From the NCBI RefSeq assembly GCF_022809315.2, contig NZ_JAKZJU020000001.1, positions 682,001 to 746,000 on the forward strand: a stretch of 64,000 nucleotides of DNA. The letters run 5' to 3'. A model generated the notes under the pieces. That model was not told where the DNA came from. It saw only the letters and a list, made by a program, of their open reading frames with translations, and did not search any database. The translations under genes were made by a program, and so were the position numbers. The DNA is from Mesosutterella faecium. Lineage in GTDB: Bacteria; Pseudomonadota; Gammaproteobacteria; Burkholderiales; Burkholderiaceae_F. Within the stretch, counting starts at the first letter, position 1. Every line of letters starts with the position of its first letter. This document shows, piece after piece, positions 29,367 through 58,674 of the stretch.

Positions 29367-29512
29367 GAAGTCGGACCTTTCATAATGTGACTTTCTGCTC
29401 TGATGTTTTAACGAATTGCGATCCACAACGGAACCCTCTCATAAAAAAAATTGGGAGGGGTGGTCTCTTGGTTCTGAATAATTTGGTGGGTACTTTATTT
29501 CAATTCACGACA

Positions 29513-31608
29513 CCCACGCACGTGGGGAAAAGGAAAGCTCGATCGTGTAATCGACACGGTACCCGGAAACATCCCCACGCACGTGGGGAAAAGCGGCTGC
29601 TGTGGCAAAAGTGAAGCGCGAACTGGAGAAACATCCCCACGCACGTGGGGAAAAGTACTGGAACTACCACGGACACGAACTGCCGTGGGAAACATCCCCA
29701 CGCACGTGGGGAAAAGGGCGACTGAGCGCGTGTACACGATTGCGCAGGGGAAACATCCCCACGCACGTGGGGAAAAGGCAACGGCGCCCGCGTCCTCGCG
29801 CGAGCCCACAGAAACATCCCCACGCACGTGGGGAAAAGCTGCATGCCGTCGTCCTGATACGCCATACGCTTGAAACATCCCCACGCACGTGGGGAAAAGT
29901 CTTTGACCCAAGCGTGGCCCGCCCCGTAGGGGGAAACATCCCCACGCACGTGGGGAAAAGGGGGTCGTCCTTGACATCGGACTTTGGCTGCTGGAAACAT
30001 CCCCACGCACGTGGGGAAAAGGCGTCGCAGGTCGTCTCAAATACCGAGCAGGCGGAAACATCCCCACGCACGTGGGGAAAAGCCCTTGAACCCCAAGCTA
30101 GCCAGAGCATTGGCAGAAACATCCCCACGCACGTGGGGAAAAGCGGCAAGGAAATACCGCCCATCGGCGCTTGTGAGAAACATCCCCACGCACGTGGGGA
30201 AAAGCCAGAAACAGAGGCTGTGGTCTCGGACCACTCGGAAACATCCCCACGCACGTGGGGAAAAGTTCCTGCATAAGCGAAGCAAGAACATCTTTAAGGA
30301 AACATCCCCACGCACGTGGGGAAAAGCCTGCCGATCGACTTCCGCGAGCCGCCGATGTAGAAACATCCCCACGCACGTGGGGAAAAGCTCGAAGATCGAG
30401 ACACGCTCCACTTCCTCGGGGAAACATCCCCACGCACGTGGGGAAAAGCGTGCTTCTTTGCCGGTCGATCAAACTGCTGCAGAAACATCCCCACGCACGT
30501 GGGGAAAAGCCGGTTGGCTTCAAGCAATGCTGAGAGGTGAGAGAAACATCCCCACGCACGTGGGGAAAAGCCAGGCGAGCGCCTCGTTCACCGGCCCCAG
30601 CGTGGAAACATCCCCACGCACGTGGGGAAAAGTACGCAGGCGCAGGGCGGGCCAGTTCCCTTGCTGAAACATCCCCACGCACGTGGGGAAAAGCCTCCCG
30701 GATCGTGTCGACCTGTCGGCGCAGCGGAAACATCCCCACGCACGTGGGGAAAAGCCTCTTGGGCTTTATCCCCGCCACTTTTCGTTAGAAACATCCCCAC
30801 GCACGTGGGGAAAAGCAAACCGAGATCGATAAGTTCCCGTATTGCCTTGAAACATCCCCACGCACGTGGGGAAAAGGCAGCCTGGGGCAGGTCGGGGATC
30901 CCCCAGCGGGAAACATCCCCACGCACGTGGGGAAAAGGACGTGGAAACCAATGTCCGGCGTGAAGTAACGGAAACATCCCCACGCACGTGGGGAAAAGCA
31001 GTCAAGTCTCTGGTCGATCCTGATCTTCTGAGAAACATCCCCACGCACGTGGGGAAAAGACCTTTTCTGACCTTTCAGGGTCGAGCCTTCTGGAAACATC
31101 CCCACGCACGTGGGGAAAAGACAGGGGAGATGGAGGAGAGGAAATGACAGAGGGAAACATCCCCACGCACGTGGGGAAAAGCCGCCTTAGGGCGGCTTTT
31201 CTTTTATCTATTTGGAAACATCCCCACGCACGTGGGGAAAAGTGCTCGTCGAGGCTGCGCGCCAGGCCAGGGAGAGAAACATCCCCACGCACGTGGGGAA
31301 AAGGGGCTGAGATCGGCAGGTGGACGAAGCTATGCAGAAACATCCCCACGCACGTGGGGAAAAGGCTGTCAATGGCCGTTGGAGCTAACGGTGAATAGAA
31401 ACATCCCCACGCACGTGGGGAAAAGCCGACGCGCTCGCGCTCACCTTCGCTACAGATGGAAACATCCCCACGCACGTGGGGAAAAGTTACTCACCAGAAG
31501 GTCGCCGACGCGCTCGGCGGAAACATCCCCACGCACGTGGGGAAAAGCTTCCGCGGCTTCGTCACCGACTACCAGTGGAAGAAACATCCCCACGCACGTG
31601 GGGAAAAG
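29513..31608 (-). CRISPR. Type I-E CRISPR array, leader-proximal part
   Basis: A truncated repeat (29513-29532) is followed by 34 full 28-bp repeats and 34 spacers (33 bp, two of 34 bp). Repeats are identical to those of the distal part. cas2e and the leader lie to the right, so new spacers enter near 31608 and transcription runs leftward, giving the sense repeat CTTTTCCCCACG...GGGGATGTTTC with a 7-bp stem. With the distal part, the array originally held about 57 repeats and 56 spacers. Confidence 0.97.
31177..31200. terminator. Terminator-like hairpin formed by a spacer with its repeat
   Basis: The last bases of a repeat plus spacer 31182-31214 read AAAAGCCGCC-TTAG-GGCGGCTTTT, a perfect 10-bp stem followed by CTTTT on the plus strand. 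On the array's sense strand the same hairpin ends in TTTT before CCCC. The spacer probably copies a foreign intrinsic terminator. Confidence 0.7.
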
Positions 31609-31680
31609 TTCAAAATGTTGTATAAAGTGCAAGATATTAAATCAATATTTAGTGGTCCCAGTTGTTAAAGAGCTCAAGGA
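31609..31680 (-). promoter_or_regulatory. CRISPR leader
   Basis: This 72-bp AT-rich stretch lies between the cas2e stop and the first repeat. It contains AATCAATATTTAG at 31640-31652, one mismatch from the IHF consensus WATCAANNNNTTR, 32-44 bases from the array; type I-E integration in E. coli needs IHF in the leader. Leftward -35/-10-like hexamers (TTGATT, TATACA) exist but with short spacing. Confidence 0.7.
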
Positions 31681-31965
31681 TTACGTGCCGGCCTTTTCTA
31701 AAACAAGTTGCAGACCATTAAAGTCAACCACTTTCTTTGAAGGAATCCCTAAGGTATACAGCCTGTAAAAGGGAGGTTTAGAAAGATCCTTAAATATGAT
31801 TAAACCGGACTCTGGCGGACAATTTTGCAGAAGATAACTAATAACCTTGTCTGCCACATAATCTGTGATTCCTGAAACAAACACATTAGCTCTTGGTTCT
31901 GTAAACCACAGTTTCAGTCTCCCCCTTATTTTCATGGGAAGGTCATTTGCTACCAATACAACCAC
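31681..31965 (-). CDS. cas2e: CRISPR-associated endonuclease Cas2, type I-E
   Basis: A 94-residue protein. VVLVANDLPMKIRGRLKLWF and EPRANVFVSGI are characteristic of Cas2e (CT1978 type). It bridges two Cas1 dimers in spacer acquisition. The start is GTG at 31965 with AGGAGG 5 bases upstream, and it overlaps cas1e by 23 bases. It is the last cas gene before the leader and array. Confidence 0.93.
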   Translation of the reverse strand: MVVLVANDLPMKIRGRLKLWFTEPRANVFVSGITDYVADKVISYLLQNCPPESGLIIFKDLSKPPFYRLYTLGIPSKKVVDFNGLQLVLEKAGT

Positions 31966-32818
31966 TGCGTCCTCCTAAAACTTTAGGTATATCGGTGCAC
32001 ATCTTCTGCAAAAGGTTCATATCAATAACTCTTTGCCTGAAATTATTGAGGACTTTAATTCGGTCATATTCACCTCCCAGCAGTTTAGTCAATGAAAAGG
32101 CTAAGTCGATAGACACATCAGCTTTGTAAAGATCGGAGATGTCGTATACAAAAGGAAGAGGAGAGCCTGAATGGATGAAACCTATATGAGGCGAATAGCC
32201 TAAAGCGTGAATTACTGATGAAGTAATTCCGTAAAGAGCCGCATTGCAAGCAGTTAAAATCTTATTAGTGGTATCAGAAAAACAAAATTTTTCAGGAACA
32301 AAAGACCGCCCTTTCCAACCGACGTGATATTCCATCGCCTTTGCAATATAAAGCGCTTTAACTCTCTTTCCCTCCATCCCTCTGAGTTCACTAAGACTTC
32401 TCCCGTCAAGATCCGCCTCCGGGAAGCGTTCCCTCAACATATTCACCGCAACCGCAAGTCTTTTTTGAGGGTTGGCGGCGAGTTCCATTTGGAGGCGAAA
32501 TTGTTTCGTATCGGCTGTGGGGGTATCTCCGAATGCGTAAAACAAAAGAGAATCTTCTCCTGCCCAGCACAGCATACAGTTCGAAGCTGCACAGACCTTC
32601 ACAGCTTCATGGGTGACGGAAGTGCCAGGGCCTAGAATCAAGCAGCTGATAGTGGCTACAGGAATGCGCACGAGATTATTGTCACTATCAATCCATTTGA
32701 TGCTGCTGTCATCAACCACTACTCTGCCGTGTTCCAGATATAAAAAGGGAAATTTATCTCGAACTTTGGGCAGAGTATCTCGCGTTATTTTGACGAAAAT
32801 TCTAGGGCCGGCGGTCAT
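31943..32818 (-). CDS. cas1e: CRISPR-associated integrase Cas1, type I-E
   Basis: A 291-residue Cas1e. The metal ligands correspond to Glu149 (RGMEG), His216 (GFIHSG) and Asp229 (YDISDLYKAD), all present and spaced as in E. coli Cas1. It integrates prespacers at the leader end together with Cas2. Nothing suggests disruption, so spacer acquisition could still be possible if expressed. Confidence 0.95.
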   Translation of the reverse strand: MTAGPRIFVKITRDTLPKVRDKFPFLYLEHGRVVVDDSSIKWIDSDNNLVRIPVATISCLILGPGTSVTHEAVKVCAASNCMLCWAGEDSLLFYAFGDTPTADTKQFRLQMELAANPQKRLAVAVNMLRERFPEADLDGRSLSELRGMEGKRVKALYIAKAMEYHVGWKGRSFVPEKFCFSDTTNKILTACNAALYGITSSVIHALGYSPHIGFIHSGSPLPFVYDISDLYKADVSIDLAFSLTKLLGGEYDRIKVLNNFRQRVIDMNLLQKMCTDIPKVLGGRSGCIGSK

Positions 32819-32832
32819 GGCTATTTCCTGAT

Positions 32833-33534
32833 CTACTCCTGTACCCTGTTTAAGGTGACATACCGACTCTGATAAATTTTTTTTATTCCGAATGAAACCG
32901 GTACATCCTTAAGAAGGAACACTTCCCCAGAGTCAGGGTGCGCCCCTTCAATTACTTGGAACAGAAGCTGACGCCCTTTTTCTTTTGCTATTTCGTCTGC
33001 TTTTGCTTTTGCGTCTTTTACAGATCCAAAAATCCCTTGGAAAATCAACTCAGATGGGACACAACTTCTTCGACCTAAAGATAAAGGCCAAGTAGGTTGT
33101 TGAAGTGCCTCGGCAAGTTTTTCAACAAAGGTGTCTTCCTCATAGGTAAGAAAAACAGCAAAGGCTCCCGACTGCAGAAAATAGCGGTACGTTAATTTTG
33201 ATCCTGTGACTCCTGTTGGCTTTTTCCCATTGCTAGTTTTGGGTATAAATAAAGTGAGCCATGGATTATTAGAGGGATACCCACTCCCCACCATTTGGAA
33301 ATCGCAGAGCTGAGGGGGTTGCCGGTGGGCGTCACCGTATGAAAAAGCCTCCCATTTTCCAACGGTAAGTTTTTTTAGAAAGTCCTTCTGGGGGCCTCCC
33401 AGCCCTAACGCGGCGCAAAGGATCCCGCATACTCCGGAAAGGGTGGGAAAGGGCAACGTTTCCCGGCGATCAAATCGAGAGTTATATCCCCAGCTCTGCA
33501 GTGGCCCTTCTAGCCATAGGAATAAGGTTTTCAT
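32833..33534 (-). CDS. cas5e: Cascade subunit Cas5e (CasD)
   Basis: A 233-residue RAMP protein. The N-terminus TLFLWLEGPLQSWGYNSRFDRR followed by PTLSGVCGILCAALG is the classic Cas5e signature, and the C-terminal VPVSFG...YQSRYVTLNRV agrees. It caps the 5' handle of crRNA within Cascade. It starts 8 bases after cas7e. Confidence 0.94.
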   Translation of the reverse strand: MKTLFLWLEGPLQSWGYNSRFDRRETLPFPTLSGVCGILCAALGLGGPQKDFLKKLTVGKWEAFSYGDAHRQPPQLCDFQMVGSGYPSNNPWLTLFIPKTSNGKKPTGVTGSKLTYRYFLQSGAFAVFLTYEEDTFVEKLAEALQQPTWPLSLGRRSCVPSELIFQGIFGSVKDAKAKADEIAKEKGRQLLFQVIEGAHPDSGEVFLLKDVPVSFGIKKIYQSRYVTLNRVQE

Positions 33535-33542
33535 AACTCGCC

Positions 33543-34604
33543 TTATAAATTCTTCTGGAGGTCAGAAATTAGATCGTCGATCGAGTAATCGGCGTTTTCT
33601 CCCCATTCAAATTCGGCTTTTTTCCCAAACAAAGTACCGGCCATTTTTTCCTTTTTTGCAAGGTTGTTTTTCAGGCTTTCAATGCTAGGTTTAAGGAAAC
33701 CGTCTTTTGACTTAACGGGTTGCTCGAAAGAAAGCTGCATTCTTTGTCCTTTGCGGATATACACCTTGGCAAAGTCCCATGGGCAGGCTCCAGATTGGGT
33801 GCTTTGCCGTGCTGCGGGGACAGCAATGAAAAGCGCTTTTACAAAAGCCTCGACAGCTTTCCCCATCAAACCATTAGAGTTGTCTTCGAGGCCCAAGGTA
33901 TTCGCGAGAAGTCCAAGATCCAGACTGATATATCGATAGTATGTTGCGGAAGAAAATTCGAGCGTGCCCATGTGAGCACCGCCTCTTTCTCCCTCTTCGG
34001 GCAGGTCGTCGAGCGCGGTAAAGAAGTCAATTTCCGGTGATGATTTATGGGTGGAAATCGCATGGGAGAAACTGGCAGCAGCCTGAACGTCGATTTCTGG
34101 AGCCTGTGCAACCATGCGGCCAAAAAGAGCTATGTCCAATGCATCGAAATTTTTATTGAGGATTTTTTTCGAAATTGCAGACAAACTTTTTATTAAGTTT
34201 TTATCCTCTTTGATGTCAAAATTCTGTTCTTTTGCAAACTTTGCGAAAGCTTCACATTCTGCCGGGCTTATAAAAAGCAAAGTGTCCTTCGTTAATGCAT
34301 CCCCAATGATCTGTCCGCATTTATCGGCTTTGTCCTGAGTTGCTCCCAGGTTGCAGCACGCAGCAGAAATCAGTTCATTAACATGTTTAGTCCTTACGCC
34401 AAGGTGGATGCCCAGTTCCTTTTGCTGGTCATGAAGTGCCATTCGAACTTGACGTTTCCAGCACTGAGAGCTGACGCGGGCTCTTTGAACTCCGCCTATG
34501 ATGGCAGTTTTCGGGCTGCCAACGTCATCTCGATTAAGGCATGTAACAGGAAAACTTTGAAGGATGTGGAATTCGATAATTTCACCAGCGTACTTATTAT
34601 TCAT
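33543..34604 (-). CDS. cas7e: Cascade backbone subunit Cas7e (CasC)
   Basis: A 353-residue Cas7e. EFHILQSFPVTCLNRDDVGSPKTA and GGVQRARVSSQCWKRQVR are hallmark sequences, and the central FFTALDD and MGTLEFSSATYYRY match the family. Six copies would coat the crRNA spacer. Its GC content is clearly lower than the flanking chromosome. Confidence 0.95.
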   Translation of the reverse strand: MNNKYAGEIIEFHILQSFPVTCLNRDDVGSPKTAIIGGVQRARVSSQCWKRQVRMALHDQQKELGIHLGVRTKHVNELISAACCNLGATQDKADKCGQIIGDALTKDTLLFISPAECEAFAKFAKEQNFDIKEDKNLIKSLSAISKKILNKNFDALDIALFGRMVAQAPEIDVQAAASFSHAISTHKSSPEIDFFTALDDLPEEGERGGAHMGTLEFSSATYYRYISLDLGLLANTLGLEDNSNGLMGKAVEAFVKALFIAVPAARQSTQSGACPWDFAKVYIRKGQRMQLSFEQPVKSKDGFLKPSIESLKNNLAKKEKMAGTLFGKKAEFEWGENADYSIDDLISDLQKNL

Positions 34605-34616
34605 AATGAACCTCGT

Positions 34617-35258
34617 TTAAAAATTAGAAACCGGGACAATTTGAAGAAGGCCGCATCCAAAAGCTTTGCCTCGACCAATTCCAGAATAAAAAGCTCTTGA
34701 GAATGCGGTTCGATCAGTTACTTTTAAAGCTCCAGAAAGGTCTGCCTGGAAAATGGTGACTTGACCATCTTTTTTATGAGGAAAAGTCACGACTCTGCGT
34801 GGGCCGATTTCAATCCGAAGCGGGTCTACTTCAAACCCCCAACGGGGGCTCTTTTTCACAAACCAGGAACGAATGTCATCGTTGGAGGTTACAGGTCGGA
34901 TCTTTCCAGATTTTTGAGGGTTCCCTGCGTTTCGGGATCTTACGGTTGGATTGATTCGAACTGTAAATCGGTAGAAATCATAACTAAGGAAATCTTCGGG
35001 AATTTCTTTAGTGTCAACTTGTCCTAATTGCTTTTCGGGAAGTCTGTCAGAGAGCAGAAGGATGCGAACCCCTACTTGCGGCTTGTATCCAACCACTCGC
35101 CAAAGAATTCCACCGTTAATTGGGTCATCAGGATTTCGCTCGTTTGGATAAAAAATACTGCAGACGATACGGTGTAGGCTGTAGGCGTCCGTAACTTTCA
35201 GCCACGCGCAGTCAACGGGACTCAGTGAAACGAGGCTGATGTAATGCTTAAGAGCCAT
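34617..35258 (-). CDS. cas6e: CRISPR RNA endonuclease Cas6e (CasE)
   Basis: A 213-residue RAMP nuclease that cuts repeat hairpins. A candidate catalytic His is residue 29 (YSLHRIV). The glycine-rich C-terminal GIGRGKAFGCGLLQI is the Cas6 motif. It overlaps cse2 by 11 bases. Its position between cse2 and cas7e differs from the E. coli order, where it follows cas5. Confidence 0.93.
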   Translation of the reverse strand: MALKHYISLVSLSPVDCAWLKVTDAYSLHRIVCSIFYPNERNPDDPINGGILWRVVGYKPQVGVRILLLSDRLPEKQLGQVDTKEIPEDFLSYDFYRFTVRINPTVRSRNAGNPQKSGKIRPVTSNDDIRSWFVKKSPRWGFEVDPLRIEIGPRRVVTFPHKKDGQVTIFQADLSGALKVTDRTAFSRAFYSGIGRGKAFGCGLLQIVPVSNF

Positions 35259-35784
35259 TTGACTTTGTCTCCTCTTTTTTGCGAGTATCTTCTCCGTAAA
35301 AGCTATACGCCCAGATCTCCTTTACTCGATCACGGTATGCATCAGACTGGAATAGTTTCAAATCCCAAAGAAGTCGACTATAAGAAAGACTCGCTTTCTC
35401 TCGGCTTTGAATTAAATGAATGATTGGGCGGACAATCTGACAGGCTTCGTCTACAGTGTCACACGAGAGAAGTCGACGAAGTCGCGGTTCCCCCTGATTT
35501 TCACTATCTTTGTCAAAGCTTGCCCTGAGAGCTTCACCAAGATTCTGAGTTCCGTCTTCCTGTACTTTGCCGCGCGCTAGGGCTGCTGCAATGACAAAAT
35601 AGGCGTCTCGATCAGGTCGCCGGATGTCAATTCCTCCACGAATTAGGGTCGGCCACGCCTTGTAAGAGGTGACAGGGTTGTCGGCTTGGCGGAGATCGGC
35701 AGCAATACCTTTATCAGAAATGCGTTTAATCAGGTATTTGACAGTATCTTCGCACTGTTGCTGGAGAGACTTTTTTCCTTCCAT
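35248..35784 (-). CDS. cse2: Cascade small subunit Cse2 (CasB)
   Basis: A 178-residue all-alpha protein. RADLRQ near residue 30 and GKVQEDGTQNLGEALR followed by RLRRLLSCDTVDEACQIVRPII fit the Cse2 family, and YSRLLWDLKLF is its usual C-terminal block. Two copies stabilise the R-loop. It lies 16 bases after cse1. Confidence 0.92.
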   Translation of the reverse strand: MEGKKSLQQQCEDTVKYLIKRISDKGIAADLRQADNPVTSYKAWPTLIRGGIDIRRPDRDAYFVIAAALARGKVQEDGTQNLGEALRASFDKDSENQGEPRLRRLLSCDTVDEACQIVRPIIHLIQSREKASLSYSRLLWDLKLFQSDAYRDRVKEIWAYSFYGEDTRKKEETKSNGS

Positions 35785-35800
35785 TGTTCAACTCCAAAAA

Positions 35801-37255
35801 TCATTTAAAAAAACGTGACAAATTAGGCCGGCACTGAGCCCAGGCTACGATCTGGCGCGCCGTATTGGAAGGGCAGGCTTCGTTATAAGACTGCATAAGG
35901 AAACGCGAAACCCGTTGCTTTATTTCCTTTAATAAGTCGGGATCATCACAGTGATCAATAATCATCTGCTTCAGAGGATCGCATTTTTCCCAGAAATTCC
36001 TTTCGGCCCGAGCAGCAAATGAACTATCCTGTATACCTAATTTTTTAAAATAACCGTTCGTGCAGCCATAAAGAATTTTCCCCATGGCTTCGAAATCCTG
36101 CATGGCAACCTTGTATGCATTAAACCAGTCCTCATTTGGCTCTATCGTGACCGATGATTCTACGGAGTCATTGGAGGCTGAAACCTTCTGCTCACCTGTT
36201 GAATTGGTAACTCTAAGCCCGCCAGACCAGATGCCAATTTCTTCTCGGCTGAACCCTAATTTTGATAAGCAGACGGAAATCTGTTGACAGTCAGTGTCAT
36301 GCCCGCTTTGCGAGTCTAGGAATGAAGTGATGGCTGTCAGATCACGCCAGGGTTTTCTATCTGGATTCGTCCAGCGCAGCTTGATGCCATCAGGCTGCTT
36401 GAGTGTGAGCATTGATGGATCAAATCCTGCTTCTTTAAATCCGGGATATCTGATGCCCTCAGTAAAGTGAACCTCGTCCTTCTTTTCAAAAAGGCAGAAG
36501 CGACTGAGCGGGACTAGGCGTCCCATCAAAGAAGATTTCAGATCTTTTGCTACAGAGTCATCTTCACCAGAAGGCATTTTTTCCCAAGGGGGTACTCCGA
36601 GTCCCTTAGGAAATTGAGGCAGCCGTGCTATGTCTTCTAAAGTAAATGTGTTCAGCCAAATGGTTTCGAGAAGAGAAGTCCCGAAACAAAAGCTGTGCAA
36701 CGCCCCCATGAAATCCATTCCTGGCCCCGGTTTCGCAGATTTCTTTATGTAACCAGGGGTTAAGCATATAGTCTTGTCCGGCCGTTTTCCTGCAAGCGCC
36801 ATACTTTGCTGAATGATTAATATCAGGGCCTTTTCTGCGTCGGAGTGGGGCGGGTGATCCACCTGAATTTGTGTCAGTCGGGCATTATTTCCCATGGCGA
36901 TTTCGGGAATTAGCACCCCGACGGGTTTTGCGGCTGCTTTTATGACGGACGGAAACTGCAGAAAGGGGCGGTCCCCGTAGAGAAAAAAAGTGTCCCTCCA
37001 CCGGTTCAGATACTTCAGGCAGTTTTCTCCGAATTGGTCCAAATGTTTCCCTTCCAACAGCCACTCTTCCGTATTCGCAGGCGTGTGAGCTGCCTGTGAA
37101 ATTGCTTGGAGTAATTTCATCAGTGCAATGTTCTCGACAGGGGTGCCTGCGAGATGCTTAAGGGACAAATCCGAGAAAACATCACGCAAAGATACAAGGC
37201 CGCGGTATGCAGTCGGTATCCAAGGGTCATCAATAAGGCAAAAATTATTTCGCAT
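35801..37255 (-). CDS. cse1: Cascade large subunit Cse1 (CasA)
   Basis: A 484-residue large subunit that recognises the PAM and recruits Cas3. NFCLIDDPWIPTAYRG at the N-terminus, WLLEGKHLDQFGENCLKYLNRW, GDRPFLQFP and MDFMGALHSFCFGTSLLETIWLN match the family. The start is the ATG at 37255, which overlaps the cas3 3' end by 11 bases. It appears intact. Confidence 0.93.
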   Translation of the reverse strand: MRNNFCLIDDPWIPTAYRGLVSLRDVFSDLSLKHLAGTPVENIALMKLLQAISQAAHTPANTEEWLLEGKHLDQFGENCLKYLNRWRDTFFLYGDRPFLQFPSVIKAAAKPVGVLIPEIAMGNNARLTQIQVDHPPHSDAEKALILIIQQSMALAGKRPDKTICLTPGYIKKSAKPGPGMDFMGALHSFCFGTSLLETIWLNTFTLEDIARLPQFPKGLGVPPWEKMPSGEDDSVAKDLKSSLMGRLVPLSRFCLFEKKDEVHFTEGIRYPGFKEAGFDPSMLTLKQPDGIKLRWTNPDRKPWRDLTAITSFLDSQSGHDTDCQQISVCLSKLGFSREEIGIWSGGLRVTNSTGEQKVSASNDSVESSVTIEPNEDWFNAYKVAMQDFEAMGKILYGCTNGYFKKLGIQDSSFAARAERNFWEKCDPLKQMIIDHCDDPDLLKEIKQRVSRFLMQSYNEACPSNTARQIVAWAQCRPNLSRFFK

Positions 37256-38168
37256 TGCTTTCCTTACACCGGTACCAACCGATTTTTGATGAATAAATTG
37301 TATCATGCTTAAGACACGTTTTCAATCCTGTTGTGACAGTCCCGGTCTTTTGGCAAAGAGCCAGATAAAGGCCCCCTGCTTTGTCATCAGCAGCCAGATA
37401 AATAAAGTTCCCAAACCCCAATTTTTTTGCTATTTCTGATGGAATTTTTAATTCTTGAGCCTGCGATAGCGGAAGTTTTACTGTACAGTTTCGCGTTTCG
37501 GAAGCAGTTTTGCACCATTCCCTTGGCGTTTGGCTGTCATATTTCCATGGGAATTTAATTTTTTCCCCGTCTAAGGTGTAAAGGATGGTCGACGAACATT
37601 GTTTAACTGGCTCTACTTCTTTCACCAGAAGGACATCGACTGTTGGCATGTCCGAGTAGCGTGTTTGGGCCGCAGAATCGTCAATGTTGGAAAATTCGGG
37701 ATTCTCTACCTGTAGCGATGCGCGATTAATGAGTTCGCGGATGCCGATTCGGTGGTGACATTTGTCCCCATTTTCCAGTTCATTTTTCCTAACGGAAAAT
37801 AAACCGGTTTCATTACGCTCCCCCAACGCAGATTCAATCATTACAGGAATATCGGATGGGATGTTCAGTCCAGATCTATCTTTGAACACTTCGATTGTCC
37901 GGCAGAGGATATAAGGGCTGTATACGTAGGCTGAAGCGCCAAAAGCCTGATAGGGCTTTTCTAAAGCATCTTGCAGATTAGGAGAAAGTATCCATATTTC
38001 TGCTCGAGCAGCCGCAGATCGAATCGTGTCCCTGTGTCTCCACAGCCGCCCCAGTCTTTGAAACAGCAAGTCGGCCGGTGCAACTCTAGAAATCATGAAA
38101 TCAGCATCTAAATCTAAGCTTTGCTCTAAAATCTGCGTCCCAATTAAAACTCTTCCTTTTTCATTTCT
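37245..38168 (-). pseudogene. cas3: cas3, 3' part (split by IS256 element)
   Basis: In frame from the insertion point the minus strand reads GRVLIGTQILEQSLDLDADF, then VAPADLLFQRLGRLWRH, which are helicase motifs V and VI of Cas3, followed by the C-terminal domain. Joined to 39510-41260 it would give a Cas3 of roughly 890 residues, the normal size. Translation could restart at the ATG at 38096, but that would lack the HD and first RecA domains. Confidence 0.92.
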
Positions 38169-39509
38169 GAGGGTATGGAAATTCTTGTGGGCGCCCCCTT
38201 TAGGTTAATCGAAGAAAGGTGCGATCCTGTCTCCGAACTCAATGGTTAATTCTCGCATGGCAGTTTTCCAATAAGGTGATGGCCTCACCCATCTCCTCTC
38301 CACCTTTCGGATCGCCAGGTAAAGCAGCTTCAGCGCAGCGGTCTCGCTTGGGAAAGAAGCTCTTGTCTTGACAACCTTTCGCAGGTCCCGGTTCAAGCTT
38401 TCAATGGCGTTGGTGGTGTAGATCAACCGCCTGACGGCGGGTGAGAACTCAAAGAAAGGAATCACGCGATCCCATGCGTCCAGCCAGATTTTTTCGATGT
38501 AGGAATATTTTTTCCCAAGTTCCGACTGGGCAAAATCGTTCAGCGCCTGACGTGCTTCCTCGGCGTTGACAGCACGGTAAACAGGCTTCAGCGCAGCAAC
38601 AACCGCCTTGTAATCCTTGTAGTTGACCATTTTGAGGCTGTTGCGGATCAAATGGACGATGCAGGTCTGCAGCATCGTTTTCGGAAAAGCCGTCTCCAAA
38701 GCCTCCTGCATCCCTTTAAGCCCGTCCGTGACGGCGATAAGAATGTCGTTGACGCCTCGATTCTTCAGCTCGTTAAAGACTTTAAGCCAGTATTTGGCAC
38801 TTTCATTTTCGGCCATCCAAAGACCCAGGACATCCTTCTTTCCATCGGTATCCACGCCCAGGGCGATATGGACTGCCCGGGGAGTGACCACCCCGTTTTC
38901 GCCCCTTGTCTTGATCCTGATGGCGTCAAAGAAAATCACCGGATAGACAGGGCTGAGAGGACGGTCCTGCCATTTCTGAAGCTCGGGAAGTATGGCGTCG
39001 GTCACATCGCTGATGAACTCGGCGCTGGTTTCCATCCCATATTCGTCGTAAAGATAGCCCTGGATTTCCCGTGTCGTCAGGCCTCGGGCATAAAGGGCCA
39101 AAATTTTTTCGTCGAACCCATCCAGCGTCCTTTTGTGCTTCGGAACAATCCGGGGTGTGAAGCGGCCTTTGCGGTCCCGGGGTACGTCCACATGGATGGT
39201 TCCAAGCTTGGGAGACTTCAGGGTTTTGGAGCTGTGGCCATTGCGCTCATTGTCACCCGGACGTGCCTGGCCCTTTTCATAACCCAGATGATGGGTCATT
39301 TCGCCCTCCAGCATTTTCGTCAGCAGCCGCCCCAGCAGGTGGGCCATGAAATCATCCGCTTCCCCGGAGGATTTGATTTCCCGGCCGGACTTCTTCAGGT
39401 CTTCCAGAATCTGTTCCGCGAGTTTGTCAAAAGGATCAGGTGTGCGTCTCATATTTAGGCTCTCCAAGAAGCATTATCTCAGAGCGCCCACAAAATTCTT
39501 TACACCCTC
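38169..39509 (-). mobile_element. IS256-family element inserted in cas3
   Basis: The terminal inverted repeats begin GAGGGTATGGAAATTC on the left and, on the complement, GAGGGTGTAAAGAATT on the right, and both continue TTGTGGGCGC. Perfect 8-bp duplications TCATTTCT flank it at 38161-38168 and 39510-39517. The 1341-bp element holds one transposase gene. The exact duplications suggest a recent insertion. Confidence 0.95.
38205..39467 (-). CDS. IS256-family (mutator) transposase
   Basis: A 420-residue DDE transposase. The catalytic residues lie in VIFFDAIRIK (Asp), AVTDGLKGM (Asp) and TTNAIESLNR (Glu). HLGYEKGQ and GNDERNGHS-like N-terminal blocks (here HHLGYEKGQARPGDNERNGH) and QTCIVHLIRNSLK are typical. 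It is intact and in the same orientation as cas3. A start at the second ATG (MRRTPDPF) is equally possible. Confidence 0.94.
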   Translation of the reverse strand: MESLNMRRTPDPFDKLAEQILEDLKKSGREIKSSGEADDFMAHLLGRLLTKMLEGEMTHHLGYEKGQARPGDNERNGHSSKTLKSPKLGTIHVDVPRDRKGRFTPRIVPKHKRTLDGFDEKILALYARGLTTREIQGYLYDEYGMETSAEFISDVTDAILPELQKWQDRPLSPVYPVIFFDAIRIKTRGENGVVTPRAVHIALGVDTDGKKDVLGLWMAENESAKYWLKVFNELKNRGVNDILIAVTDGLKGMQEALETAFPKTMLQTCIVHLIRNSLKMVNYKDYKAVVAALKPVYRAVNAEEARQALNDFAQSELGKKYSYIEKIWLDAWDRVIPFFEFSPAVRRLIYTTNAIESLNRDLRKVVKTRASFPSETAALKLLYLAIRKVERRWVRPSPYWKTAMRELTIEFGDRIAPFFD

Positions 39510-41260
39510 TCATTTCTGTCTCGTCTGCCTGATTTGTCAAAATAGGAAACCCATTTATTTTCTATTTTCTGGCGATCGGAAAAAGTGAATCGCGAATGCA
39601 AAAGGCCGCAGTCACAATGGAGTTCAGCGCAACGAGCCGCAAGCTCCATATATATCCTTTGACTGGAAGCGACATCGTTTTCTATCCAAATGATCTGTTG
39701 CCCTTCACTGGCTCGTACAAGAACTTCATCAATTGCTGTCTGCTCCGCATTTTTCGTACTAAGAAAAGATATTTTTATGGTTCTATCTTTCAGAGCAGGA
39801 AGGCTGATATGGTTAGTTTCCCCAGAATGCCGCCGGTAGGAAATTTGAGGGTAGCTCGCAGCCTCGATTTTGGCTCCTCGCAGCAGCGATGTCCTAGTTT
39901 TGGAAGTTAAGGTTGCAGAAAGAAGAACAACTGTGCAACAGAGGCTGTCGAGGGTTTCAATTAATTTTTGCAGGAGGTAGCCGGTATATGCATCGTAGCT
40001 GTGCACTTCATCGATAATGACAACTTTTCCTGCCAGTCCGAAAGTACGCACAAAGTTATGCTTGACTCCCATAATTGAAAGAAGGGCTTGGTCTAAGGTC
40101 CCTACAGCAAAGGGGGCTAGTAGCCCTCGTTTTTTTCCTGAAAACCAGCTTCCACCAGGAGCCGTTTCTCCTCTGCCCATGTTTCGACTTTCAAAAAATG
40201 CGTCAGCTCCAGCAAACAGTAGTCGTGGAAGTGATGATCCAGGGACGGCAAAATTTAGAAACGAACAGAACCTTTCATATATTTTTGTAGCAGTAAGCTG
40301 AGTTGGCAGAGCAAAATAAATGCCTCTGGCTCTTCCAGTGGATAAAGCTAAATAGGCAGCAAAAAGAGCTGCTTCTGTTTTGCCGGCCCCCATCGGAGCC
40401 TCAAGAATATAAACACCAGGCGAAGAGGCTATGCCTGCCAGCGCTTTTTGTGTTTTTGTAGGCTCATATTTGGTGCCATTTATGTCGCTGAAAAGATCGC
40501 CGAAGGCCAAACCTTTTGTGATGATCGGGGATATAAATCCAGCCTCTTGAATACTTGCCGAGACCAAAGGTTTCCAGTTTCTCGAAGGGTCGTCAAAAAA
40601 AGCGCCGGATCCAAGCCAATCAGCGACGGTTGTTAGGCCAGATAGCAGTTGCATCTGACTTATCGAAATACTTTCTGGAAATTGCGTCCGGAAAATATTT
40701 TCTAGCTCTTCAACTAGCCTTTCCCTCTCTTTTTCCCATAGCGGTCCGCCAAAATCTTTTTGATCAGGATTTTGGCTTTCAAGAGATTTAGGCAGATAGC
40801 CATGGTGCTGCCCGACAATAATGGCCAGCCTCTTTTGGCCAGTCATTTTTTTGACAGTTGCGTAGCTGACTCCAGGGTGCCCACCCCATCCTGCAGATTC
40901 GTAATCGCGAATAGCCAGCGGAGATTTTGGGAAACCCGTTTCGTTGAGAAGTTGGTTGGCGCTGGTTGCGAGTCTTTGGCTCTTTGTTTGAAGGGCGATT
41001 CTTAGGAAAAAAGACGGGCTGAGTTTGCCAATATCGTGAGTTGCCGCAATGAGATCTGCACCGTCGGGAAATAAATTCCTTAGCCGCGGCGGAAATAGCT
41101 GTATGAGTTCTTTCGCTATTGCGCCAACTATTAGACAGTGATCTTTCACAGATCTGCCGGGTAGAACTTCTCCGGCCGAAACCCATGTTTTTGCTGGGCA
41201 GTCCTCAGCTGGTATGTCGACGGTTATCATGAAGCTGCGGGCTTGTTTTGTGCGTTTCAT
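39510..41260 (-). pseudogene. cas3: cas3, 5' part (HD and first helicase domain)
   Basis: From ATG 41260 the frame holds about 583 codons: HD nuclease THDIGKLS (His75-Asp76), QHHG (151-154), Walker A APMGAGKTE (288-296), DEVH (417-420) and motif III LLSATL. It ends at the IS256 insertion, reading about 10 bases into the element to a stop. The nuclease is present but the second RecA lobe is missing, so processive unwinding and degradation should be lost. Confidence 0.93.
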
Positions 41261-41334
41261 GATCTTTGTTTGAAAGCCGTTGCTGTAAACTTCGACGCAG
41301 TCAAGATAACATCAAACAAGGGTAATTACTAGCG

Positions 41335-41426
41335 CGTTTCCCCTTCATCTCCAAGGGGGTGTTCCCGTGTCATAAGCCTGCAGAGTATGCGACTTGGGTG
41401 TTTCCCCACCGTTGTGGGGGTGTGTT
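41335..41426 (+). CRISPR. Solitary degenerate repeat-spacer-repeat unit upstream of cas3 (crRNA-like candidate)
   Basis: Two sequences match the sense form of the array repeat but in the opposite orientation. Repeat A (41335-41365) has CCCCTT...AAGGGG then GTGTTCC; repeat B (41399-41426) has CCCCAC-CGTT-GTGGGG then GTGTGTT. Each keeps a 6-bp stem in spite of base changes. The spacer between them (41366-41398) is exactly 33 bases, the array's spacer length. Either a relic of another array or a crRNA-like regulatory RNA. The rest of 41261-41693 has no gene and no further repeat. Confidence 0.6.
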
Positions 41427-41693
41427 TTGGCTAAAACTTATCCTTCTTCAAAACAGGAAAGTTGAGCAGCTTGAACTTTGGTTGGCGTACGCGTCAGAGC
41501 TGATCTCACAAATCGCGAGCAATCCTCTGATTAATCGCATAATCGTGAAAAGTAGGGGCCGTCAAGGACGTTGATGCTTAAAAAATAAAAAGAGAATTTC
41601 GGTTTCTAAAATTAAGCTTTTCCCGTTGGGCGCGGAAGCTTGCCAAAAGGTTCGCTAATGCTTGTATACCAAAGGTAAGGGGATTTAGATTTT

Positions 41694-44108
41694 TTACAGA
41701 TATTTTCCTGTAAGGCTTTGCGGAAGGGATTTGATATAGGACGGCGTTCCCTCCCCGGCCAGCCAACCTCCCTCTGGCCCCCGTCCGCCGAGATCAATTA
41801 CCCAGTCGCAAGAGGCGATGATCTGTGGTTCGTGTTCAGTCAGCACGACGGTGTTGCCCGCGTCGCAGAGTTTTTGAAATATGTTTGAAAGCACTGCAAT
41901 GTCCGACATATGGAGCCCTGCTGTGGGTTCGTCAAAAATGTAGAGAGTCCGCCCAACGTCCGGCCGGGCCAGTTCCGCGGCGATTTTGATTCTCTGACAC
42001 TCTCCGCCGGAAAGTGTGTGGGAAGGCTGGCCCAGATGGATATAGCTCAGCCCGACTTCGGCCAGAGCCCGGAGTTTTCTCATGATGGCGGGCCTGGCCT
42101 TGAAGTGCTCCATGGCCTGCTCAACGGTGAGGTCCAGCACTTCAGCAATGTTCAAACCCTTGTAGCGTACTTCAAGCGTCTCACTGTTGTAACGGGTTCC
42201 GTGGCAGGTGTCGCAGGGAACGAACACATCGGGCAGCAGCTGCATTTTGATTTGTCGTATGCCCTCGCCCTGGCAGGTTTCGCACCGCCCGCCCGGAATG
42301 TTGAAACTGAACCGACCGGCTGTATATCCGCGCTCCTTCGCCAGAGGCATTTCCGCAAACACTTCGCGGATGAGCTGGAAAAGGCCAAGGTACGATGCAG
42401 GGATTGAACGAGGCGTTCGTCCTATTGGAGACTGATCGACCATGAGGACCCGGCTGAAATTTTCAAGTCCCTCGATGCCTGTGCAGGCGACCGGGTCCGC
42501 GCCATCGGCATGGTTGAGCATCCGGGAAGCGGCCTTGTATAGAACGTTGTTGACCAGAGAAGATTTTCCGGATCCGGACAGCCCGGTGACTGCTGTGACG
42601 CAGCCCTCGGGGATCCGCACACTGATGCCCTTCAGGTTATTTGCTCGGGCTTCGCGGATGGTGATCCAGGTCTTGCCCGGGACACGGGGCTTGACCGGGA
42701 GCGGCATTTTTTTTCTGCCCGACAGGAAGGCTCCGGTAAGGGACGCAGGTGAGGCCATGACCTCCTTGAGTGTCCCGGCCGCACAGACCATGCCTCCGTG
42801 CTCTCCGGCTCCGGGGCCCATATCCACCAGATAGTCTGCCGCCTTCATGGTTTCTTCCCTGTGTTCCACCACGATGACGGTGTTGCCCTGGCCTCGCAGG
42901 CTGAGCAGCGTGTTAATCAGCCGGTCGTTTTCAGCGGGATGAAGGCCCGCGGAGGGTTCGTCCAGAACATAAGTGACGCCGGAGAGCCGAGTGCTCAGCT
43001 GCGCGGCCAGGCGTATGCGCTGAGTTTCGCCTCCCGAAAGTGTGTCCAGCGTTCTTGAGAGCGAAAGGTAGCCGAGGCCCGCTTGAATGAGGAATCCTGC
43101 CCTAGCCTTTATTTCCTGAAGCACGGGGTCGGCGATGGCGGCCCGCGCATCTTCAAACTTCAAAGTTTCAAAGAAAGCCCCGAAATCTGACAGGGTACGG
43201 GACAGTAAAGCGGGGTAGTTCGGGCCTTTCGGGGAGCCAAGGAAAACGTGCAGCGCGGCCTCTCGATCCCCTGCGTCCGATTCTGCCGGAGCCGCTTGAG
43301 GGCTCAGCGAAGAAAAGAGGGAAGGCTCGAGCCTGGAGAAGGAGAAGTCGCATTCCGGGCAGCTGTAATTCGTGGAAAAGCGCAGCTCTTCGCCCGTCCT
43401 GTAGTGCATGACTCCGACTTTGCCGCCCGAGAGGCTGGCGGCGAGCTCCAGGCTCTCACTCAGCCTATCCCGGGAGCCCGGACGGAGTTTGAGGCGGTCG
43501 ACGACAATGTCCAAGCGGCCGGGAGGCGACGCGGTGAGGCTTTCAGGGTTGATTTCGTCAAGGAGCATGATGGCGCTGCCAACGCGGAATCGCTGAAAGC
43601 CAAGTGAAGCCATGCGGCGGAAAAACTCTGAAAAATCGAAGCCGGTACCGAAGGTGACCGGCGAGAGTACAAGCACCGGCGTTTCCTGAGGCCATTCGAG
43701 AATGCTGGAGGCCATGGAGGAAATCGGAGTGGCCTTAAGTTCTATGCCGTGGATCGGGCAGCACGGGGTTCCGGCCCTGGCAAAAAGCAGCCTCAGGAGT
43801 TCCGCGATTCCCGTGGAGGTTGCGACGCTTGACAAGGGGGAGCCTCCCCTGGTGAGCTGCCGCACAGCGATTGTGGGCGAGAGCCCATCGATGGAGTCGA
43901 CATCGGGTCGTGGCAGCAGCGTGAGAAACTGCCTGGCGAATCCCGTGACCCCTTCTAGAAAGCGCCTCTGCCCTTCGGCGTAAATCGTGTCAAAGGCCAG
44001 TGAGCTCTTTCCGGAGCCTGAGGGGCCCGTGATGACGATGAGCCGGCCCTGAGGCAGGCCGAGGGAGATGTTCTTGAGGTTGTGGGTTCTGGCGCCGGAA
44101 ATCTGCAT
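41694..44108 (-). CDS. UvrA-like ABC ATPase (paralogue, shortened)
   Basis: An 804-residue protein related to excinuclease subunit UvrA (~940). The first Walker A is GPSGSGKSS (28-36), the first signature LSGGETQRIRLA, the second Walker A GLSGSGKSS, the second zinc module CETC...CDTC is complete and the second signature is LSGGECQRIKIA. The first zinc module keeps only CPEC; its partner CxxC and about 130 residues of the insertion domain are gone. Located divergent from ssb with clcA between. It may be a UvrA2-type paralogue rather than the main repair protein. Confidence 0.8.
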   Translation of the reverse strand: MQISGARTHNLKNISLGLPQGRLIVITGPSGSGKSSLAFDTIYAEGQRRFLEGVTGFARQFLTLLPRPDVDSIDGLSPTIAVRQLTRGGSPLSSVATSTGIAELLRLLFARAGTPCCPIHGIELKATPISSMASSILEWPQETPVLVLSPVTFGTGFDFSEFFRRMASLGFQRFRVGSAIMLLDEINPESLTASPPGRLDIVVDRLKLRPGSRDRLSESLELAASLSGGKVGVMHYRTGEELRFSTNYSCPECDFSFSRLEPSLFSSLSPQAAPAESDAGDREAALHVFLGSPKGPNYPALLSRTLSDFGAFFETLKFEDARAAIADPVLQEIKARAGFLIQAGLGYLSLSRTLDTLSGGETQRIRLAAQLSTRLSGVTYVLDEPSAGLHPAENDRLINTLLSLRGQGNTVIVVEHREETMKAADYLVDMGPGAGEHGGMVCAAGTLKEVMASPASLTGAFLSGRKKMPLPVKPRVPGKTWITIREARANNLKGISVRIPEGCVTAVTGLSGSGKSSLVNNVLYKAASRMLNHADGADPVACTGIEGLENFSRVLMVDQSPIGRTPRSIPASYLGLFQLIREVFAEMPLAKERGYTAGRFSFNIPGGRCETCQGEGIRQIKMQLLPDVFVPCDTCHGTRYNSETLEVRYKGLNIAEVLDLTVEQAMEHFKARPAIMRKLRALAEVGLSYIHLGQPSHTLSGGECQRIKIAAELARPDVGRTLYIFDEPTAGLHMSDIAVLSNIFQKLCDAGNTVVLTEHEPQIIASCDWVIDLGGRGPEGGWLAGEGTPSYIKSLPQSLTGKYL

Positions 44109-56694: not shown

Positions 56695-58674
56695 ATGGAC
56701 AAGATCGTTTCCCGAAGGAGTTTCCTGCGCAGCAGCCTTTTCACCGGAGCGGCCGCCGCGGTGCCCTCCGTAGCCTCCGCCAGGGGCCTGTACAAGCCCG
56801 GGGTTTATTCCGCCAAGGCTTCGGGCATCGGCGATGTCATCGTCACGATGACCTTCAGCGAGGACCGCATCACGGACGTGGTGCTCGACGTCTCCCATGA
56901 GACTCCTTCAATTGGACAGGCCGCCGGAGCGCGCCTGAAGGCGAACCTTCTGAAGGCCCAGTCCGCAAAAATCGATGCCGTCTCCGGAGCGTCCATCACC
57001 TCCAAGGCTGTGAGCCAGGCTGCAGCGAAGTGCATCGCGCAGGCAAAGGGCGAGATTCCGGTCGAGGTGATCACGAAGGGCGAGTCCTCCGACAGCGGCG
57101 ACTGGCTCGGCAAGCCCCCCGAGATTGCCGAGAAGGACATCGCCGCGACCTATGACACGAACGTCCTCGTAGTGGGCTGCGGCACGGGCGGCATGTTCGC
57201 CGTGGCCGCCGCCGCGGAGGAGGGCGAAAAGGTGATTGGCATCGACCGCTTCCCCACCGGCACCGGCATCCGCGATGATCTTGGCGCCATCAATTCCAGG
57301 TATCAGAAGGCCTACGGCACGAAAATTGACAAGTTCGACTTCGTCACCGCCGCCACCCAGTACGCCGCCGGGCACCTCAGCCAGGACCTGGTCAAGCTCT
57401 GGTGCGACCGCTCGGGCGAGGCGATCGACTGGTACGGCGACCGGCTCGCGGAGCGCGGCATCAAGCTCGTGCACGAATCCGGCGACAAGGTGGACCAGTC
57501 CCGCTACCATCATTTCCCGACCGGGCACTCGCCTGCCTGGCCCTATTCCATCGGCGGCGGCAAGATCCAGTCCGCTTCCAAGGGACCGGTTCTTACGGGC
57601 AACATCATCCTTCACGACTATGCGGTGAAAAAGGGCGCGCGCTTCGACTACGAGACCACGATGGTGAAGCTCGAAAGGAAGGGCGGCCGCGTGACGGGAT
57701 GCATCGCGAGGAACTCCGAGGGCAAATACGTCCGGTACAACGCCCGCAAGGGCGTCGTGGTCGCCACCGGCGGCTACTCCCAGAACTATCCGATGATGGA
57801 GGCCCTCCAGCCCTGGAACCTGCGCATCATCGGCCGCAACGGCTCCATGCCCGGCGCCCGCGGCGACGGCATCCGGGCCTGTCTCTGGGTCGGCGCCAAA
57901 ATGGATGAGACGCACAGCATGATGATGTTTGACCGCTGCGCGCTGCGTCCCGACCAGAAGGTGGGTGTGGAGACCGCCAAATCCGGCGACAACGGCTTTT
58001 TCTGGATGGGCTCCCAGCCCTGGCTCAAGGTGAACGCCGACGGCCACCGCTTTTTCAACGAATCGGGCACCTACGAGGGCATTCTGCACGCCGACGAGTA
58101 TCAGAAAGGCCACTGCCACTACACCCTTTTTGACAGCAACTGGACCCGCTACGTCCAGCAGTTCAAGCAGCACGGCTGCTCGCGCCTGTATCCGTTCGAG
58201 AACGGCGCCGCGCCCAACATTCCGTGGCAGACCGTCGAGAAGATGCTGCCCGGGCTGATCGAGAAGGGGTTCCTCATCAAGGCGGACACGATCGAAGACC
58301 TGGCGAGGGGTCTGAAGCTGCCGCCCGAGGAGCTGAAGAAAACTGTTGCCCGCTACAACGAGCTTGTCAGAAAGGGCAAGGACGAGGACTACGGGAAAGA
58401 GCCTTTCCGTCTGTCTCCCGTCGACAAGCCCCCGTTCTATGGAGCGAAGAACTGCGGCTACATCCTCTGCACGATGGACGGCATCCAGATTGACACTCAC
58501 ATGAATGCGATCGACACGGAGGGCAATCCGATTCCCGGCCTCTATGTCGTAGGAAATGACTCGGGCTCTTATTTCGCCAATACCTACCCGAATCTCGTGA
58601 CCGGCATGGCCTGCGGCCGCACGGTGACTTTCGGACGCCTGGTCGGCAAGTACCTTGCCCGGCGCAAGGCCTGA
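56695..58674 (+). CDS. Tat-exported FAD/FMN-dependent reductase (fumarate/urocanate reductase-like)
   Basis: A 659-residue flavoprotein. A Tat signal SRRSFLR (6-12) with cleavage after ASA (near 29) targets it to the periplasm. An FMN-binding domain follows with the flavinylation-type motif SGASIT (97-102). The FAD_binding_2 domain starts at VLVVGCGTGGMFA (about 155). No haem CxxCH is present, unlike classical flavocytochrome c. The family reduces fumarate, urocanate or other enoates using quinol-derived electrons; the substrate cannot be told. Confidence 0.88.
   Translation: MDKIVSRRSFLRSSLFTGAAAAVPSVASARGLYKPGVYSAKASGIGDVIVTMTFSEDRITDVVLDVSHETPSIGQAAGARLKANLLKAQSAKIDAVSGASITSKAVSQAAAKCIAQAKGEIPVEVITKGESSDSGDWLGKPPEIAEKDIAATYDTNVLVVGCGTGGMFAVAAAAEEGEKVIGIDRFPTGTGIRDDLGAINSRYQKAYGTKIDKFDFVTAATQYAAGHLSQDLVKLWCDRSGEAIDWYGDRLAERGIKLVHESGDKVDQSRYHHFPTGHSPAWPYSIGGGKIQSASKGPVLTGNIILHDYAVKKGARFDYETTMVKLERKGGRVTGCIARNSEGKYVRYNARKGVVVATGGYSQNYPMMEALQPWNLRIIGRNGSMPGARGDGIRACLWVGAKMDETHSMMMFDRCALRPDQKVGVETAKSGDNGFFWMGSQPWLKVNADGHRFFNESGTYEGILHADEYQKGHCHYTLFDSNWTRYVQQFKQHGCSRLYPFENGAAPNIPWQTVEKMLPGLIEKGFLIKADTIEDLARGLKLPPEELKKTVARYNELVRKGKDEDYGKEPFRLSPVDKPPFYGAKNCGYILCTMDGIQIDTHMNAIDTEGNPIPGLYVVGNDSGSYFANTYPNLVTGMACGRTVTFGRLVGKYLARRKA

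What the first reader, a model, noticed from the sequence alone, without database searches (positions are those of the whole stretch)
41335..41426. Solitary degenerate CRISPR unit upstream of cas3, inverted relative to the main array
Seen directly: two repeat-like sequences, each with a 6-bp stem kept by paired changes (CCCCTT/AAGGGG and CCCCAC/GTGGGG), a handle-like GTGTTCC or GTGTGTT tail, and a spacer of exactly 33 bases, the array's own spacer length. Known: degenerate repeat-spacer units near cas promoters of several type I and V systems encode crRNA-like RNAs that guide the effector to repress cas genes or toxins by partial matching. Inference: this may be such a guide in an I-E system. 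I found no seed match in the adjacent cas3 promoter region (41261-41334), so the target is unknown.
Basis: partly seen in the sequence, partly recalled or inferred. Interest (0 to 1): 0.85.

Follow-up and report, generated by a model that had tools for sequence, protein, structure and literature searches.

The report
CRISPR guide that silences its Cascade

Summary
The unit is real: two degenerate type I-E repeats (41335-41366, 41399-41427) around a 32-nt guide, on the strand opposite to the arrays. A strict repeat pattern occurs in the 2.6-Mb genome only at these two places.

The target lies 4 kb away. Guide positions 1-5, 7-11, 13 and 14 match the minus strand at 37317-37304; the mismatches in those 14 are at 6 and 12, which do not pair in Cascade. 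The site has an AAC PAM and covers the spacer, -10 and start region of the best sigma-70-like site of the cas region, inside the 3' end of cas3 and about 40 bp before cas8e. It is the genome's only seed-plus-AAN site. Arrays with a near-identical handle use AAY PAMs in 9 of 10 phage protospacers checked. A distant proteobacterium (L023) has a similar unit with the same match pattern and AAC PAM at its cas8e start.

Best reading: a CreR-type crRNA-like repressor of the Cascade operon, a new member of a known kind. Expression and repression are untested, and such units are rare among the relatives scanned. cas3 is split by a recent insertion sequence.

The parts
41335..41366 (+). upstream degenerate repeat (R1), stem CCCCTT/AAGGGG with 7-nt loop; last 8 bases 41359-41366 (GTGTTCCC) = predicted 5' handle
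41367..41398 (+). 32-nt guide GTGTCATAAGCCTGCAGAGTATGCGACTTGGG; seed = positions 1-11
41399..41427 (+). downstream degenerate repeat (R2), stem CCCCAC/GTGGGG with 4-nt loop; also scored as terminator-like
37286..37317 (-). predicted Cascade target (non-target strand shown); seed match 37317-37304, mismatches in that stretch only at guide positions 6 and 12
37318..37320 (-). PAM AAC next to the target
   Evidence: AAY PAM of relatives' arrays
37297..37325 (-). promoter-like site TTGAAA-17-TACAAT with TG before the -10, for cas8e and probably the Cascade genes after it
   Evidence: best of 10 sites in 31400-41700
35801..37255 (-). cas8e (cse1), start ATG at 37255 (chosen by its RBS and by homologues; the ORF caller gives 37306)
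31681..35784 (-). cas11 (cse2), cas6e, cas7, cas5, cas1, cas2, all open (cas2 by position and length only)
37245..41260 (-). cas3, split into 39500-41260 (HD, DEAD and the start of the Cas3 C-terminal domain) and 37245-38096 (C-terminal part)
38169..39510 (-). insertion sequence with a Mutator-family transposase inside cas3, identical over 1342 bp to another genomic copy
29505..31608 (-). main CRISPR array beside cas2 (a second stretch lies at 24154-25512)

Best explanation
The unit is a creR-type gene. Transcribed on the + strand away from cas3, it would be cut by Cas6e after the two stems into a crRNA-like RNA: 8-nt handle, 32-nt guide, 3' stem. Loaded into Cascade, it recognises an AAC PAM and pairs through its seed only (1-5, 7-11, plus 13-14) with the promoter inside the end of cas3 that drives cas8e and, by inference, cas11-cas6e-cas7-cas5-cas1-cas2. 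The R-loop would cover the promoter spacer, -10 and start site and block RNA polymerase. With only 3 of 18 matches beyond position 14, Cas3 cutting is not expected. The result is negative feedback on Cascade, relieved when array crRNAs or anti-CRISPRs occupy Cascade. Shown: unit, seed match, PAM, promoter-like site, uniqueness in the genome. Inferred: transcription, processing, loading, co-transcription, repression, relief.
For: Seed-plus-PAM pattern AANGTGTCNTAAGC has 1 match in the whole genome, 0 for the reversed control, and it is this site. The site is in the best promoter-like sequence of the 10.3-kb cas region. The mismatches in the first 14 fall at 6 and 12, positions that mutation showed to be free in a type I-B CreA (PMC8501985 passages). 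PAM AAY for arrays with the near-identical GTGTTTC handle: AAT 6, AAC 3, GGT 1 of 10 protospacers, third base equal to the 29th repeat base in 10 of 10. Chance: 5 of 53,600 shuffled seeds hit the cas3 or cas8e start windows with an AA PAM. Of 151 non-array guides in the window and relatives only 2 had a full seed plus AA PAM, the window's and L023's, against 0 in five shuffled sets and 0 reversed. L023 is a second case: unit between cas3 and cas8e, 12 of 12 pairing positions of the first 14 matched, AAC, target over the cas8e start.
Against: No RNA data. No sigma-70-like site for the unit itself was found on the + strand in 41261-41334. Without the PAM condition, seed matches of the 151 guides are hardly above controls: 11 against 5, 6, 9, 4, 8 shuffled and 7 reversed; and 10 of 1899 array spacers also have a full seed plus AA PAM somewhere in their locus. 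R1 has a 7-nt loop, which could weaken Cas6e binding. Fold energies are ordinary. The unit is rare: it is in 1 of 5 genomes of the genus, the same-genus G003 has cas genes but no unit upstream of cas3, and among 85 loci with cas3 and cas8e only L023 shows a clear repeat-like pair. A look-alike unit before cas8e in G511 has no exact seed target in its 82%-complete assembly, where 12 one-mismatch sites occur against 4 for the reversed control. The PAM was not measured for this array (no protospacer). No second strain of the species was seen, so conservation is untested.
Confidence: 0.84

Rival explanations
1. It is the decayed remnant of an old array or a stray repeat pair left by rearrangement, and the seed match is chance.
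For: Repeats are worn; relatives mostly lack the unit (1 of 85 loci with a clear pair); a same-genus genome without the cas locus keeps one stray array repeat at the corresponding edge; cas3 is broken.
Against: About 1 in 10,000 chance per guide of a full seed plus AA PAM in the cas3 and cas8e start windows; the mismatches of the first 14 only at non-pairing positions; PAM of the AAY kind; site in the best promoter-like sequence. Both stems are kept by paired changes and the spacing is exactly 32.
Confidence: 0.1
2. CreTA-type: the guide is an antitoxin that represses a small toxin gene.
For: A putative type I-E CreTA module lies between cas3 and casA in Citrobacter rodentium (PMC12055562 passages).
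Against: The only genomic seed-plus-PAM site stands before cas8e; only about 35 bases separate the expected start site from the cas8e start codon, with an RBS and no room for a small gene.
Confidence: 0.03
3. An ordinary self-targeting spacer taken up from the cas locus, later decayed.
For: Guide and target share a PAM-flanked match.
Against: The match stops at 14; positions 15-32 match in 3 of 18, chance level. The unit stands alone with worn repeats.
Confidence: 0.03

Closest known systems
CreR, cas-regulating RNAs (Liu et al. 2023, Cell Host Microbe; paper not held; known here only from review passages)
   Same: crRNA-like guide, partial match to the promoter of its own cas operon, autorepression; the mLife review passage names types I-B, I-E and V-A.
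   Different: Here the unit faces away from cas3 and the target is 4 kb off, in a promoter-like site inside cas3 that would drive Cascade but not cas3. Whether published I-E CreRs do this could not be read.
CreA of CreTA in haloarchaeal type I-B (PMC8501985, passages)
   Same: Two degenerate repeats around a guide; base pairing at 1-5 and 7-11; target in a promoter next to a PAM; 6 and 12 free.
   Different: Subtype I-E; no toxin; target is the effector operon.
Putative CreTA of the Citrobacter rodentium I-E system (PMC12055562, passages)
   Same: Type I-E, crRNA-like guide in the cas locus, partial match beside a PAM at a promoter.
   Different: There a toxin ORF in the cas3-casA gap is repressed and the PAM is ATG; here cas8e itself and an AAC PAM.
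Unit in L023, uncultured proteobacterium LJ-3-4m_bin-0427
   Same: Two repeats, 32-nt guide, 12 of 12 pairing positions in the first 14 matched, AAC PAM, guide A against target T at position 6, target at cas8e.
   Different: Lies between cas3 and cas8e on the cas strand; target covers the cas8e start; different seed; 8 of 18 matches beyond position 14.

Membership tests
CreR (cas-regulating crRNA-like RNA) | solitary, degenerate repeat-spacer unit outside the array, near cas genes | tested here: met
CreR (cas-regulating crRNA-like RNA) | partial, seed-type match (1-5, 7-11) to a cas promoter | tested here: met
   the promoter is predicted
CreR (cas-regulating crRNA-like RNA) | PAM of the system beside the target | tested here: met
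   AAC; AAY in 9 of 10 protospacers of two Edwardsiella arrays whose handle is GTGTTTC (the window's is ATGTTTC). No protospacer found for the window's own array, so the PAM is carried over from relatives; its 29th base C/T fits
CreR (cas-regulating crRNA-like RNA) | no linked toxin gene | tested here: met
   target promoter leads straight into cas8e; single genomic site; small genes elsewhere near the unit were not searched for
CreR (cas-regulating crRNA-like RNA) | RNA made and cut by Cas6 | not testable with these tools
   needs small-RNA sequencing
CreR (cas-regulating crRNA-like RNA) | represses cas expression through the effector | not testable with these tools
   needs a reporter or deletion
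CreTA | target promoter drives a toxin | tested here: not met
Ordinary I-E CRISPR array | near-identical repeats, same as the cas-linked array | tested here: not met
   R1 and R2 differ from each other and from the array repeat

The most novel reading that the evidence does not exclude
The guide separates control of Cascade from control of cas3. It shuts a promoter embedded in cas3's own coding end, so feedback sets the amount of effector complex while cas3 keeps another promoter. Now that an insertion sequence has split cas3, the surviving Cascade would serve as a nuclease-free, self-limiting repressor. The shared A-to-T difference at position 6 here and in L023 may be a selected feature rather than drift.
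Probability: 0.25. Interest if true: 0.68.

Novelty: new member of a known kind. Interest (0 to 1): 0.56.

Why it matters
It turns a target-unknown curiosity into a precise prediction: ten base pairs, a PAM and a promoter, testable with one reporter. It would extend CreR-like control to the lineage around Parasutterella. With the case in L023 it suggests that such guides can arise more than once to restrain Cascade rather than cas3. It also warns that the target of such a unit need not be the neighbouring promoter.

Tried and rejected
Cas3 promoter as target: no full seed match there (which scanned the whole window, which scanned the cas3 start region for seed plus AA PAM; one search left out sites within 70 bases of the unit and so does not count for this). 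Other seed-like hits in the window (21547-21579, 57127-57159) lack the PAM. L045 (Serratia sp. Ag1) gave a third hit, but its PAM is AAG, not AAY, and its hairpin does not resemble the repeat: set aside. Rfam: no match in 41200-41700 up to E 1. Window array against phages: no match; against plasmids: 24 records with weak matches (60-80% identity), which I take to be other arrays and did not follow. Class-wide search with the L023 Cas8e: 3 of 369 genomes matched, one of them the window's own; one (G511) has a look-alike unit and no exact target. Weak paired hairpins in L043, L055, L061, L067, L083, L086 and L124 do not look like the repeat and were not counted.

Full report
WHAT IS THERE. The window holds a type I-E cas locus on the - strand (cas3, cas8e, cas11, cas6e, cas7, cas5, cas1; cas2 by position, a 94-aa ORF) and arrays whose repeats read on the - strand (57 places). 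Upstream of cas3, on the + strand, stand two degenerate repeats around a 32-nt guide. R1 is 41335-41366, R2 41399-41427, the guide 41367-41398. The 29th repeat base in the arrays is C 30, T 22, A 5, G 0, so I count it with the handle, as in E. coli I-E (recalled). R1 and R2 carry GTGT after the stem, like most of the relatives' arrays listed, whereas the window's own array has ATGT. The pattern TTTCCCC-N6..12-GGGGGTGT is found in the genome only at R1 and R2. One pair of repeat-like hairpins at the right spacing is found in the window with arrays cut out, none in 100 shuffles. The 93-nt unit folds with both hairpins, but its energy is not exceptional. The scan also lists R2 as terminator-like, so it may end the transcript; it lists no + strand promoter in 41261-41334.

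THE TARGET. Scanning the window with the guide showed a match on the - strand at 37317-37304, extended as 37286-37317 with PAM AAC at 37320-37318. Guide GTGTCATAAGCCTG against GTGTCTTAAGCATG: all twelve positions other than 6 and 12 match; of positions 15-32, 3 of 18 match. In Cascade every sixth guide base is flipped out and does not pair (recalled for I-E; for a type I-B CreA, positions 6 and 12 were shown by mutation not to matter and 1-5 plus 7-11 to be required: PMC8501985, passages seen). In the whole genome AANGTGTCNTAAGC occurs once, here; reversed control 0. The site lies within TTGAAA-17-TACAAT with a TG before the -10, the best of 10 promoter-like sites in 31400-41700 (the number of sites there is no more than shuffles give, mean 12.2). 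The cas8e start with its RBS follows at 37255. The site is inside the 3' coding end of cas3.

THE PAM. The window's array has no protospacer in the phage collection. Two Edwardsiella arrays with the GTGTTTC handle do. From 8 hits that I picked by hand, against 29 spacers of the two arrays, 10 distinct protospacers gave AAT 6, AAC 3, GGT 1, the last a poorer match of 28 of 32; the third base equals the 29th repeat base in 10 of 10. AAC therefore fits; it is carried over from relatives, not measured in this strain.

CHANCE AND CONTROLS. In the window and the longer relative loci then held (the 12 short loci L001-L006 and L010-L015 left out), 151 guides behind non-array repeat-like hairpins were tested: 11 had a 10/10 seed match somewhere in their locus, 2 with an AA PAM (window, L023). 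Five shuffled sets gave 5, 6, 9, 4 and 8 without the PAM condition and 0 with it; the reversed set 7 and 0; array spacers 109 and 10 of 1899. So it is seed plus PAM, and the place of the hit, that carries weight. In a narrower test on 94 loci, 268 candidate guides (overlapping hairpins included) against the cas3 and cas8e start regions gave three distinct hits against 0.025 expected from 5 of 53,600 shuffled seeds. The third, L045, has an AAG PAM and no repeat-like hairpin and I set it aside. At least four records are in these sets twice, judged by equal contig lengths (L008/L101, L027/L127, L060/L126, L093/L121), so the numbers of loci are slightly high.

RELATIVES. The window's family includes Parasutterella secunda: G011 and L101 lie on contigs of the same length, 77,081 bases. 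A related cas8e is in 10 of 67 genomes of the family and 11 of 399 of the order, the window's own counted. Of 5 genomes of the genus only the window's own matches the unit itself. The same-genus G003 has cas3 to cas1 but no unit before cas3. The same-genus G004 has no related cas8e and no cas gene between flanks 92-96% alike; its flank resumes at window 41460, just after the unit, and a single array repeat remains there. So the unit is absent where the locus is absent. L023 carries a unit between cas3 and cas8e, guide ATGAGATTTAGTTT against ATGAGTTTTAGTTT, AAC PAM, over the cas8e start. G511 carries a look-alike unit before cas8e without an exact target in an 82%-complete assembly. Among 85 loci with cas3 and cas8e (window and G511 not in the set) only L023 has a clear repeat-like pair upstream of cas3 or between the genes (weaker pairs listed under tried and rejected). 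Such units are thus rare among the relatives scanned.

CAS3. cas3 is split by an insertion sequence with a Mutator-family transposase, identical over 1342 bp to another genomic copy, with four copies of identical protein in the genome, hence probably recent. Interference is probably lost now, while the Cascade genes are open and the guide and its target are in place. Whether the feedback still matters cannot be told.

KNOWN OR NEW. The review passages I saw say that CreRs repress cas operons by promoter binding, widely in types I and V-A and by partial promoter match in I-B, I-E and V-A; the primary paper is not held. A putative type I-E CreTA module is described for Citrobacter rodentium (passages). 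This unit therefore works like a CreR and meets the features that could be tested here. I file it as a new member of a known kind. I make no claim that it is absent from print: the five paper searches cover open-licence papers only.

Noticed in passing
38169-39510: Insertion sequence with a Mutator-family transposase inside cas3, with an apparent 8-bp TCATTTCT duplication read by eye in the flanks printed; four copies of identical protein in the genome.
   Followed up: partly
24154-25512 and 29505-31608: The repeats form two stretches about 4 kb apart; the first repeat of the second stretch is cut short at its end, as if the array had been interrupted.
   Followed up: no
L120:10778-10806: Same-genus genome G004 has no cas genes here and keeps one lone array repeat at the edge, beside what look by eye like transposase fragments.
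   Followed up: partly
window 37312, L023 target position 6: In both supported pairs the guide has A and the target T at non-pairing position 6; two cases only. The set-aside L045 hit shows the same difference.
   Followed up: no
L141 (G511 contig C81), about 180-275: A two-repeat mini-array stands directly before cas8e; guide TTATCGTGGTG..., no exact target in the incomplete genome.
   Followed up: partly
arrays of L043 and L055 (Edwardsiella): I-E arrays with the GTGTTTC handle use an AAY PAM (9 of 10 protospacers) with the third base kept as the 29th repeat base.
   Followed up: yes
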